DNA of 63,050 bases from a bacterium (GTDB taxonomy: Bacteria; Zhuqueibacterota; Zhuqueibacteria; Zhuqueibacterales; Geothermadaptataceae): NCBI GenBank assembly GCA_024275575.1, contig JAJRYV010000079.1:1-63050 (forward strand), read 5' to 3'. The number at the start of each line of letters is the position of its first letter. Within the stretch, counting starts at the first letter, position 1. Below the pieces are notes generated by a model. It saw nothing but the letters and a program-made list of their open reading frames with translations, did not search any database and was not told where the DNA came from. Made by a program: the position numbers and the translations under genes. Of the stretch, positions 28,846 through 34,422 are shown one piece after another.

Positions 28846-29162
28846 CTGATGAGGAGGAGTGTGTATACGGAAAAGTCCATTGGTCATACGTGCATGGTAC
28901 CATTGAATCCTGTTACCATTGGCAACAGCCCGGCGCTGTATCTTATTCCCGGTGACTGAAAAAAATCATAAATTTACCGGCAAAAGCGGGATAAAATCCT
29001 GCCGCCATCCATGTGGCTTGAAAGCAGATGGTTTTTTGAGTTCATGAAGTTATTTTTTTGCAGCTTGATATTGCATTTTATATATTTTTATTTTATAGTT
29101 AATGCTTCATACCGTTTTGGTGACCGTTTAGTTTCAAGTTGCAAAATCATGGAGAGTTCGCC
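28846..29162. other. Intergenic region before clpS
   Basis: About 320 bases. A GAGGAGGAG at 28851-28859 precedes a 32-codon plus-strand frame from a GTG at 28861 to a TGA at 28957-28959, but the spacing is short and the peptide is unlike anything I know. Short minus-strand frames have no ribosome-binding site. I call none of them a gene. Confidence 0.45.
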
Positions 29163-29504
29163 ATGAAACCCGAATTGCCCGATGCCGGTTTTGAGGCAAA
29201 AAAGAAGACAAAAGTGATTCATATTCCGCAGTACAACGTCATCCTCTGGGATGATAATGATCACAGTTATGATTATGTTATCGAAATGCTTGTGGCTATT
29301 TTTCGCCATTCCATCGACATGGCATTTCGCATGGCTGTGGAAGTGGATAGCCGCGGCCGGGTCATCGTTGAAACCACCAGCAAGGAACGGGCGGAGTTCA
29401 AAAGGGATCAGATTCATGCCTACGGCGGGGACTGGCGAATTGAGCGTTGCAGAGGCTCAATGAGCGCGACGATCGAACCCGCTGAAAAAGGCAGCGATGA
29501 TTAA
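29163..29504 (+). CDS. clpS: ClpS-type adaptor for the Clp protease
   Basis: A 113-residue protein of the ClpS fold, which hands N-degron substrates to ClpAP. The core is WDDNDHSYDYVIEMLVAIF followed by DMAFRMAVEVDSRGR and ETTSKERAEFKRDQI. The DDND-H-Y-V start and the A/E helix match the family, while the usual xHxxG after the second helix is changed to VDSRG, as in ClpS-like proteins of several environmental phyla. Binding of N-end-rule residues is therefore likely but not certain. GGAGAG lies six bases before the ATG at 29163. glgB follows 87 bases on. Confidence 0.82.
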   Translation: MKPELPDAGFEAKKKTKVIHIPQYNVILWDDNDHSYDYVIEMLVAIFRHSIDMAFRMAVEVDSRGRVIVETTSKERAEFKRDQIHAYGGDWRIERCRGSMSATIEPAEKGSDD

Positions 29505-31805: not shown

Positions 31806-31836
31806 GGAATAGGGGGCTCGATAAAGGAGTCTACCC

Positions 31837-33021
31837 ATGTTGACCAATGAAGAAATAAAACGGCTTCTGAACGATATGGAAGCCGACAATATTGAGCGGA
31901 CTGTTTCCAAAAATAAAACAGATAAATTTTGCCAGGCCATCTGTGCCTTTGCCAACGACATGCCGGGGCATGGAAAACCAGGCTATCTGATCATTGGCGC
32001 TGATGACAAAACCGGGAAGATTACGGGGATTGAAATCACGGATCAACTGCTGCAAAACCTAGCCGGCTCCCGCGACTCCGGCCAGATTGTGCCTTTGCCC
32101 TCTCTCACGGTGCAAAAACACTCTTTTCCCGAAGGAGATATCGCGGTGGTGCAAGTGCAACCATCAGACATGCCGCCGGTCCGCTACCGGGGTCGTGTTT
32201 GGATTCGGGTTGGCCCACGCCGAGCTGTCGCAGCTGAACACGAAGAGCGGATACTTACTGAACGCCGGGTGTATAACGCCAGGACATTCGACATGCAACC
32301 CTGCCTTGGCTGCGGCCAGGATCAAATCGTCTTTTCTCTCTTCGATGATTACCGCACCGCCGCCATCGCCCCGGAAATCATCGAAGAGAATGATCGTGAT
32401 ATGTTTCAGCAGATGGCCGCACTGGGGTTATGGGACATGCAAAATCAGTGTGTTACCAATGCCGGCGCCCTGTTGTTTTCAGAAGCGCCACAAAATTGGT
32501 TACCCGGCACTTATCTCCAGTATGTTCGGTTCGAAGGGGACGGCCTGGAATCCGATACTCTGGACGAGCGCAAGTTTACCGGTGATTTGCCAACAATCCT
32601 TCGGGAACTGGATGCATTCATAAAAACGCTGTTTCCTTCCCGCCCTGTCCCGGTTTCTGCACTAAGGGAAAAACAGATAACTCCTTATCCGCAATGGGCC
32701 ATTCGCGAACTGCTCATGAACGCAGTCATGCACCGTGACTATCAGTCTAATGCACCGGTTCGTTTTTACTGGTTTTTCGATAGAATCGAAATTCAGAACC
32801 CGGGCGGATTATATGGCGCCGCCACTGATTTCCCCAATCAAAACGATTACCGAAACCCTAAAATTGCAGAAGCGATGAAAAACCTTGCTTATATCAATCA
32901 GTTCGGTCGAGGAATAGCCACTGCCCAAACAGTTTTACAAAAAAACGGCAATCCACCGGCTGAATTCACCATCGACAAACCCAATTATTTTCTCGCAACT
33001 GTGCCGGGTGCTGAATTATGA
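31837..33021 (+). CDS. Schlafen AlbA_2 / HATPase_c_4 protein
   Basis: A 394-residue protein. The N-terminal AlbA_2 (Schlafen core) domain (about 15-145) has the conserved acidic start (NIERTVSKNKTDKFC), AFANDMPG, IIGADD and the IRVGPR strand. The C-terminal half holds a GHKL-type ATP-binding part, with the N box RELLMNAVMHRDY, NPGG and FGRGI. The family is annotated as an ATP-binding or transcriptional regulator and occurs in defence and mobile loci; some Schlafen domains cut RNA. AAAGGAG lies seven bases before the ATG. Its last four bases overlap the start of the ParA-like gene (ATGA), so the two are translationally coupled. Confidence 0.86.
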   Translation: MLTNEEIKRLLNDMEADNIERTVSKNKTDKFCQAICAFANDMPGHGKPGYLIIGADDKTGKITGIEITDQLLQNLAGSRDSGQIVPLPSLTVQKHSFPEGDIAVVQVQPSDMPPVRYRGRVWIRVGPRRAVAAEHEERILTERRVYNARTFDMQPCLGCGQDQIVFSLFDDYRTAAIAPEIIEENDRDMFQQMAALGLWDMQNQCVTNAGALLFSEAPQNWLPGTYLQYVRFEGDGLESDTLDERKFTGDLPTILRELDAFIKTLFPSRPVPVSALREKQITPYPQWAIRELLMNAVMHRDYQSNAPVRFYWFFDRIEIQNPGGLYGAATDFPNQNDYRNPKIAEAMKNLAYINQFGRGIATAQTVLQKNGNPPAEFTIDKPNYFLATVPGAEL

Positions 33022-34001
33022 AAACCATAGCTTTTTTTAATAATAAAGGTGGCGTTGGCAAAACCACGCTGGTCTACCACATTGCCTGGATGATGGCGGA
33101 ACAGGGGCATAACGTGCTGGCAGCCGACCTGGACCCGCAAGCGAATCTCTCAAGCATGTTTCTTGAAGATGAGCGCCTGGAAGAGTTGTGGCCGGAAAAT
33201 GGAGACCATCTAAGCTTTTTGCCGTGTATTTCGCCAATTCTGGAAGGGACCGGTGATATTGCGCCTGCGTACACTGAGAAAATCCTGGATAACCTGCACC
33301 TGATTCCCGGTGATCTTGGATTGTCCAATTTTGAGGATAAACTCTCGGACAGTTGGCCTCGTTGCCTGGATAATGATGCGGCAGCGTTTCGCGCCATTAC
33401 GGCTTTTTATCGTATCATTTATGCCGCCGCCGGGAATATATCCGCGGATATTGTGCTGATTGACGTCGGCCCCAATCTGGGCGCTATCAATCGCTCTGCG
33501 TTGATTGCAGCAGATTATGTCATTTCACCGCTGGCACCTGACCTTTATTCTCTGCAGGGCCTAAAAAATCTTGGGCCGACATTAAACCAATGGCGACTTG
33601 GGTGGAAAAAAAGACTGGAACAGAAGCCGGAAAAATTAGAGATTTCTTTCCCCTCCGGCAGTATGACACCGGTGGGTTATATCATTATGCAACATGTTGA
33701 GCGAAAAAGCCGCCCGGTTAAATCCTATCAAAAATGGGTGGAGAGAATACCTGCCACTTACCGGGAATATATTCTCAAGCAAGCAGGCGATTCGCCGTCT
33801 GAAGGTGACGACCCCAACCGCATCGGACTGGTTCGTCATTATCAAAGCTTAATGCCCATGGCGCAGGAAGCAAGAAAAGCTGTTTTTTTTCTCAAACCGG
33901 CAGAGGGTGCTATCGGCGCTCACGCCCAAAGCGTGCGAAAATGCTACATGGATTTTAAGCAGATTACAGAAACTATACTGCAAAAAACGAAATTGGGGTA
34001 G
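33018..34001 (+). CDS. ParA/MinD-family ATPase
   Basis: A 327-residue P-loop ATPase with the deviant Walker A KGGVGKTT (residues 10-17), AADLDPQANLS (A' motif) and VLIDVGPNLG (Walker B). The order fits ParA-type enzymes, which dimerise on ATP and bind DNA non-specifically. It is longer than minimal ParA, with an extra C-terminal region (about 200-327) rich in basic residues. No parB or centromere-like repeat is nearby, so plasmid-type partition is unlikely. It overlaps the AlbA_2 gene by ATGA, and the SRPBCC gene starts 11 bases after its stop. It probably works with the AlbA_2 protein. Confidence 0.88.
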   Translation: MKTIAFFNNKGGVGKTTLVYHIAWMMAEQGHNVLAADLDPQANLSSMFLEDERLEELWPENGDHLSFLPCISPILEGTGDIAPAYTEKILDNLHLIPGDLGLSNFEDKLSDSWPRCLDNDAAAFRAITAFYRIIYAAAGNISADIVLIDVGPNLGAINRSALIAADYVISPLAPDLYSLQGLKNLGPTLNQWRLGWKKRLEQKPEKLEISFPSGSMTPVGYIIMQHVERKSRPVKSYQKWVERIPATYREYILKQAGDSPSEGDDPNRIGLVRHYQSLMPMAQEARKAVFFLKPAEGAIGAHAQSVRKCYMDFKQITETILQKTKLG

Positions 34002-34011
34002 ATGTGGATAA

Positions 34012-34422
34012 ATGACTGCAATCAGGCAAAACATCCAAATCGAGGCCCCTGTGTCTCGGGTGTGGCCGTTGTTCGATATTCGCAAGTGGCCGGAAATATC
34101 TAAAATCTATACCGCTGTTTCGATTAATACGAAAATTGTGCGACTCAAAACCACGGCAGAAATCATCTCCCGCTTCAGCCTGATGAAAATTCATTACGCC
34201 GTCATGATTTCAGCATGGTTGGAAAATGAAAAACTCGCATACAACCGTTTTGACGGCCCTCTGCCCGGTCATAGCGAATGGATTTTGTCAAAGATAGAAA
34301 ACGGGACTCGAATAGATTTTCGCAATGATTTTTTACATAATCTTGGGTCTGGACTGCAGCAGGAAATCGCTGAAAATATGCAGAATTTTCTGCAGGATCT
34401 GAAGCGATTTGCGGAAGAATAA
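34012..34422 (+). CDS. SRPBCC (polyketide cyclase/START-like) family protein
   Basis: A 136-residue protein with the helix-grip signature: TAIRQNIQIEAPVSRVWPLFDIRKWPEIS at the start, a beta-rich middle (DGPLPGHSEWIL) and a long C-terminal helix (LQQEIAENMQNFLQDLKRFAEE). Members bind hydrophobic ligands in a deep pocket. No catalytic residue can be named. It starts 11 bases after the ParA-like gene and may be co-transcribed, though such proteins are common and the link could be chance. It converges on the esterase gene. Confidence 0.75.
   Translation: MTAIRQNIQIEAPVSRVWPLFDIRKWPEISKIYTAVSINTKIVRLKTTAEIISRFSLMKIHYAVMISAWLENEKLAYNRFDGPLPGHSEWILSKIENGTRIDFRNDFLHNLGSGLQQEIAENMQNFLQDLKRFAEE

What the first reader, a model, noticed from the sequence alone, without database searches (positions are those of the whole stretch)
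31837..34422. Schlafen/AlbA_2 - ParA-like ATPase - SRPBCC cassette, a candidate undescribed system
The sequence shows an ATP-binding Schlafen-core protein and a ParA-type ATPase fused by a 4-base ATGA overlap, with an SRPBCC gene 11 bases on. Schlafen domains include RNA-cutting proteins, and ParA ATPases act as dynamic DNA-bound switches. No ParB or partition site is near, so a plasmid role is unlikely. I know of no named system with this pair. A defence or regulatory function is inference. The cassette is inserted between glgB and an esterase gene, with no link to either.
Basis: partly seen in the sequence, partly recalled or inferred. Interest (0 to 1): 0.72.

Follow-up and report, generated by a model that had tools for sequence, protein, structure and literature searches.

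The report
Schlafen–ParA toxin-switch gene pair
Two overlapping genes, one for a likely RNA-cutting Schlafen enzyme and one for a ParA-like ATPase, travel together as a mobile pair in at least 17 bacterial phyla and sometimes sit inside known anti-phage operons, which points to a little-described, modular immune or toxin system whose ParA part also pairs with other cell-damaging enzymes.

Summary
In detail: AlbA_2/Schlafen–HATPase (31837–33021) and a ParA-like ATPase (33018–34001) overlap by ATGA. The pair is a real, conserved two-gene unit. In a genome scan most close ParA relatives (about 40–63% identical) were directly preceded by this Schlafen gene; 44 of 52 intact pairs keep the 4-base overlap, and the pairs span at least 17 phyla. 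The SRPBCC gene is not part of it: a same-genus genome has glgB–SRPBCC–esterase without the pair, an empty site. No ParB relative was found in the flanks. Schlafen RNase residues E15, E20 and D57, GHKL residues and ParA ATPase residues are conserved. In three phyla the pair lies inside Hma defence operons, and in one locus between BREX brxC and pglX. More distant members of the same ParA family sit next to SIR2, RelA/SpoT or HEPN enzymes, also overlapping, on plasmids and (pro)phages. Best reading: an abortive-infection or toxin–antitoxin-like module with a constant ParA-type switch and exchangeable toxic effectors. Prior art: a HEPN–ParA pair was predicted in 2013, and a 2025 preprint (not readable here) reports bacterial Schlafens in phage defence. 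Function and the direction of control are inferred, not shown.

The parts
31823..31829 (+). Shine-Dalgarno-like AAAGGAG, 7 bases before the ATG of the Schlafen gene
   Evidence: read directly from the sequence
31837..33021 (+). Effector gene: Schlafen/AlbA_2 core (residues 15-128) plus C-terminal GHKL HATPase_c_4 domain, 394 aa, no wHTH
   Evidence: Pfam; conserved E15, E20, D57 and GHKL N295/G323; AlphaFold pLDDT 93; Foldseek to DIP2311 3lmm and mammalian Schlafen cores
33018..33021 (+). ATGA overlap of the effector stop and ParA start
   Evidence: sequence; 4-base overlap in 44 of 52 intact homologous pairs
33018..34001 (+). Switch gene: ParA/Soj-like deviant Walker ATPase with family-specific C-terminal third (about residues 198-327), 327 aa
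   Evidence: Pfam; K10, K15, D39, D149 conserved; only 3pg5/DIP2308 among PDB sequences matches full length, other ParA/Soj match the N-terminal part only
34012..34422 (+). SRPBCC-like gene; NOT part of the cassette (resident chromosomal gene)
   Evidence: same-genus G001 has glgB-SRPBCC-esterase with no AlbA_2/ParA pair; no homolog near any other pair examined
31806..34001 (.). Inferred extent of the inserted cassette between glgB and the SRPBCC gene; exact ends not determined, no flanking repeat seen
   Evidence: empty-site comparison; repeats

Best explanation
A mobile two-gene abortive-infection / toxin-antitoxin-like module. The Schlafen-GHKL protein is the toxic effector, most likely an RNase that cuts tRNA or other RNA with the E15/E20/D57 carboxylates. 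The ParA-like SIMIBI ATPase is the switch: through its ATP cycle and its family-specific C-terminal third it binds the effector, holds it inactive or sets when it fires, and senses infection. When triggered, translation stops and the infected cell dies or goes dormant. Shown here by computation: the conserved unit, the overlap, the intact active-site residues, the cross-phylum spread, the empty site, the placement inside Hma and BREX operons, and the swap of the effector for SIR2, RelA/SpoT or HEPN enzymes in other branches of the same ParA family. Inferred: RNase activity, binding of the two proteins, ParA as the restraining and sensing part, and a phage-derived trigger.
For: Pair conservation with 4-base overlap. 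Pairs spread over 17 named phyla and mixed on the ParA tree; the two gene trees agree (r 0.69; maximum of 2000 permutations 0.23). Patchy: 5 of 82 genomes of the own phylum, 29 of 398 Pseudomonadota genomes. Empty site in the same genus. Schlafen residues E15 57/57, E20 57/57, D57 54/58, with spacing 5 and 37; rat SLFN13 E205/E210/D248, where mutating any of the three diminished cleavage, has 5 and 38 (PMC5862951). Structure match to Schlafen cores. Pair inside Hma operons (L030, L045, L058) and between BrxC and PglX (L087). Same ParA family next to SIR2_2, RelA_SpoT and HEPN_RiboL-PSP genes with intact catalytic motifs. Many members on plasmids and viral contigs. Schlafen gene broken, truncated or missing beside an intact ParA in about a dozen loci, the reverse in two.
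Against: No activity was tested. The window copy sits alone among housekeeping genes with no defence neighbour. One relative (G046) keeps an intact Schlafen gene beside a broken ParA, which is awkward if ParA is an essential antitoxin; a draft-assembly error is possible. The near-versus-far PADLOC comparison is suggestive only. Binding of the two proteins was not modelled.
Confidence: 0.6

Rival explanations
1. ParA is an activator or DNA-bound assembly platform, not an antitoxin: ATP-bound ParA gathers on foreign DNA, recruits the effector and switches it on; the effector is harmless alone.
For: ParA/Soj relatives bind non-specific DNA as ATP dimers (established for ParA/Soj); ATPase residues conserved; solo ParA-family genes exist in phages; an intact Schlafen gene beside a broken ParA in G046.
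Against: About a dozen loci have a broken, truncated or missing Schlafen gene beside an intact ParA against two of the reverse, which fits a toxic effector better; HEPN-ParA was independently argued to be toxin-antitoxin (PMC3710099).
Confidence: 0.25
2. A partition or plasmid-maintenance remnant: ParA segregates DNA and the Schlafen protein is its DNA-binding partner in place of ParB.
For: ParA fold; some family members on plasmids.
Against: No ParB relative in the loci; the pair is chromosomal in the window and in complete chromosomes among the loci; the other partners are enzymes (SIR2, RelA_SpoT, HEPN), not DNA-binding adaptors; pair inside Hma and BREX operons.
Confidence: 0.05
3. A transcriptional-regulator pair of the COG2865 type (ATP-binding Schlafen-like regulator) with ParA as cofactor, controlling neighbouring genes.
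For: AlbA_2-HATPase proteins are often annotated as regulators (established annotation practice, from memory).
Against: These proteins are about 395 aa and end after the HATPase domain, without the wHTH reported for the BREX-linked Schlafens (PMC12839542); no conserved target gene nearby; the RNase carboxylates are conserved.
Confidence: 0.1

Closest known systems
HEPN (MAE_18760)-ParA/Soj dyad, predicted toxin-antitoxin (Anantharaman et al. 2013, PMC3710099)
   Same: ParA/Soj-like ATPase next to a toxic nuclease gene; HEPN loci found here fall in the same ParA family
   Different: Effector here is Schlafen-GHKL and is encoded upstream; the 2013 paper names HEPN genes as the partner of ParA, and mentions Schlafen only as a domain fused to some of these HEPNs
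Bacterial Schlafens in anti-phage defence (Taboada et al., bioRxiv 10.1101/2025.07.24.666596, cited in PMC12839542) and Schlafen-histidine kinase-wHTH proteins of BREX/BR loci (PMC12839542)
   Same: Schlafen core plus GHKL-type domain; association with Hma/BR and BREX operons
   Different: No wHTH here; paired with ParA; the words ParA, Soj and SIMIBI do not occur in PMC12839542. The preprint could not be read, so overlap with this finding is possible
Mammalian SLFN11/12/13/14 RNases
   Same: E-x4-E plus D carboxylate triad and core fold
   Different: Single bacterial core, joined to a GHKL domain, operon with ParA; activity untested
DIP2311 (3lmm) and DIP2308 (3pg5), Corynebacterium diphtheriae structural-genomics orphans
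   Same: Best structural matches of the Schlafen-GHKL and ParA proteins respectively, with locus tags three apart
   Different: Distant (about 18-26% identity); their own operon layout was not examined

Membership tests
Schlafen RNase family | SLFN/AlbA_2 core domain | tested here: met
   PF04326 E 8e-16; Foldseek to SLFN14/11/12/13/5 cores
Schlafen RNase family | three-carboxylate active site | tested here: met
   E15 and E20 57/57, D57 54/58; rSLFN13 reference
Schlafen RNase family | RNA cleavage | not testable with these tools
   needs biochemistry
ParA/SIMIBI deviant Walker ATPase | signature Lys, Walker A Lys, catalytic Asp, Walker B Asp | tested here: met
   K10 64/64, K15 62/64, D39 64/64, D149 65/65
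ParABS partition system | adjacent ParB | tested here: not met
   no ParB hit in the loci (one ParB query)
ParABS partition system | parS centromere site | not tested
   no search for parS sites was made
HEPN-ParA/Soj dyad (2013) | MAE_18760 HEPN gene next to ParA | tested here: not met
   window partner is Schlafen-GHKL; the ParA belongs to the same wider family
Type II-like toxin-antitoxin | small overlapping two-gene operon with a potentially toxic enzyme | tested here: met
   toxicity itself untested
Type II-like toxin-antitoxin | toxin lethal alone, neutralised by partner | not testable with these tools
   indirect only: broken-gene asymmetry
Hma / DUF499 BREX-related or BREX system | helicase, methyltransferase and ATPase core | tested here: not met
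   absent in the window; pair embedded in such operons at L030, L045, L058, L087
Any PADLOC 2023 system | specific full-length model match to both proteins | tested here: not met
   only partial matches, e.g. Schlafen region of a long pAgo model and Walker region of PDC-M28B

The most novel reading that the evidence does not exclude
One ParA-like ATPase family, defined by a C-terminal third without a match in partition ParAs, is a general immune switch that has repeatedly taken different effectors (Schlafen, SIR2 NADase, RelA/SpoT-type enzyme, HEPN RNase, possibly a nucleotidyl cyclase), forming a new modular class of bacterial defence / toxin-antitoxin systems.
Probability: 0.55. Interest if true: 0.86.

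Novelty: new variant of a known kind. Interest (0 to 1): 0.73.

Why it matters
It would turn a ParA-type DNA-segregation ATPase fold into an immune switch, join several unexplained gene pairs (ParA–Schlafen, ParA–SIR2, ParA–RelA/SpoT, ParA–HEPN) under one mechanism, give a possible role to the structural-genomics orphans 3lmm and 3pg5, and offer a compact, testable bacterial relative of antiviral Schlafens.

Tried and rejected
SRPBCC as third component: rejected by the empty site and its absence elsewhere. Partition role: no ParB. Conserved third gene: none in 64 loci. Insertion repeats at the cassette ends: nothing convincing; exact junctions not recoverable because spacers have diverged. Promoter and terminator scans: promoters at chance level, terminator-like sites 7 against 3.6 expected but none at a useful position. 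Composition: no marked GC anomaly. PADLOC near/far flanks: 55 versus 14 model families among 139 proteins each, but many models hit one helicase, so only suggestive. Viral fold library: no informative match. Preprint 10.1101/2025.07.24.666596 is not held. Literature searches found no ParA–Schlafen, ParA–SIR2 or ParA–RelA system, within an open-access library only.

Full report
What is there. The window (a whole contig, C55, of an unnamed 4.96 Mb genome) carries at 31837–33021 a 394-aa protein with a Schlafen/AlbA_2 core and a C-terminal GHKL HATPase_c_4 domain, and at 33018–34001 a 327-aa ParA/Soj-like ATPase; stop and start overlap as ATGA. A 136-aa gene at 34012 resembles SRPBCC proteins only below the Pfam cut-off.

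A conserved unit. A scan of one genome per species with the ParA alignment returned 80 loci. Most of those with close ParA (about 40–63% identical) have the Schlafen gene directly upstream; the exceptions are L077, L083 and L085, and several carry broken or partial Schlafen genes. The search started from ParA, so the converse (how often this Schlafen subfamily occurs without ParA) was not measured. Of 52 intact pairs, 44 keep a 4-base overlap. The 55 pairs used for trees cover 17 named phyla that are mixed on the ParA tree, and the distances on the two gene trees correlate (r 0.69, maximum 0.23 in 2000 permutations; no species-tree background was subtracted). In the window's own phylum 5 of 82 genomes carry a family member, four with the Schlafen partner (the window's genome included), in scattered genera. 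In 398 evenly drawn Pseudomonadota genomes 29 carry one; of 30 loci, 19 have the Schlafen partner, 4 SIR2, 3 HEPN, 2 RelA/SpoT and 2 none of these.

The SRPBCC gene is a bystander. In same-genus genome G001 glgB is followed by the SRPBCC homolog (50% identical) and the convergent esterase, with no Schlafen or ParA gene. The pair was therefore gained between glgB and the SRPBCC gene in this lineage, or lost in the other; its patchy distribution favours gain. No SRPBCC homolog lies near any other pair examined.

Working parts. Schlafen positions E15 and E20 are kept in 57 of 57 and D57 in 54 of 58 sequences (N in four, among them the class-mate L005); spacing matches rat SLFN13 E205/E210/D248, where mutating any of the three diminished cleavage (PMC5862951). 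The GHKL N-box asparagine is invariant (58/58). The proteins are about 395 aa long and lack room for the C-terminal wHTH reported for BREX-linked Schlafens (PMC12839542). ParA keeps its ATPase residues, and its C-terminal third is shared across this family but has no match in partition ParA or Soj sequences in the PDB; only 3pg5 (DIP2308) matches full length. The Schlafen model (pLDDT 93) is closest to 3lmm (DIP2311), from the same bacterium as 3pg5, then to mammalian Schlafen cores. The ParA model has pLDDT 94.

A modular family. More distant ParA family members (27–37% identical) sit directly before a SIR2_2 gene, a RelA_SpoT-domain gene or an HEPN_RiboL-PSP gene, often overlapping by a few bases. 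On a tree of 116 ParA proteins the partner types sort largely by clade (Schlafen 77 rows in 3 changes, SIR2 13 in 2, HEPN 7 in 1, RelA/SpoT 6 in 2), so switch and effector have specialised together. Catalytic motifs of the SIR2, RelA/SpoT and HEPN partners are near-invariant. On viral contigs SIR2 (20) and RelA/SpoT (19) pairs dominate among the best 80 loci, with 2 Schlafen and 2 HEPN pairs; 37 show none of the four partners.

Defence context. In L030 (Pseudomonadota), L045 (WOR-3) and L058 (Elusimicrobiota) the pair lies inside an Hma operon: HmaA helicase, Schlafen, ParA, HmaB (DUF1156 methyltransferase), HmaC (DUF499), with an AbiL/AriA-like ATPase also present in L030. In L087 it lies between brxC (4-base overlap with the Schlafen gene) and a PglX gene, followed by an HEC-03B-like ATPase. 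Elsewhere, as in the window, it stands among housekeeping genes. The near/far PADLOC comparison leans the same way but is not a formal test.

Mechanism. The most economical reading is a toxic RNase effector controlled by a ParA-type ATPase switch. The broken-gene pattern (Schlafen broken, truncated or missing with intact ParA in about a dozen loci; the reverse in two) leans towards ParA restraining a toxin, but draft assemblies can create frameshifts. Whether ParA restrains or activates, and what it senses, is open.

Known or new. Anantharaman et al. 2013 predicted HEPN–ParA/Soj as a toxin–antitoxin dyad. A 2026 BREX survey reports Schlafen–kinase–wHTH proteins in BREX and BR loci without mentioning ParA, and cites a 2025 preprint on bacterial Schlafens in phage defence that could not be read. 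PADLOC 2023 has no specific model. The Schlafen–ParA pair and the unifying view of one ParA family with exchangeable effectors were not found in the searched literature, so this is filed as a new variant of a known kind.

Noticed in passing
L021:4019-4546 (phage Pf1, AY324828): Unannotated HEPN gene directly after the ParA-like 'putative regulatory protein' Orf317: Pf1 appears to carry a ParA-HEPN pair.
   Followed up: partly
L162:2539-3273: The gene directly after this ParA family member looks by eye like a class III nucleotidyl cyclase; no Pfam or PADLOC match was found at the thresholds used.
   Followed up: partly
PDB 3lmm (DIP2311) and 3pg5 (DIP2308): Two structural-genomics orphans from C. 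diphtheriae, three locus tags apart, are the best structural matches to the two proteins of this pair.
   Followed up: partly
L013:3962-5068 (Salmonella phage ST160): Solo ParA-family gene in the immunity region of P22-like phages, near the c2 repressor; no partner enzyme found.
   Followed up: partly
L007:906-1367: A small DUF4231-like protein (sub-threshold Pfam match) lies just upstream of a ParA-HEPN pair in class-mate G019.
   Followed up: no
window:24909-28767: A glycyl-radical (pyruvate formate-lyase-like) enzyme with its radical SAM activase upstream of the glgB region, and a ClpS gene at 29139-29504 between the activase and glgB.
   Followed up: no
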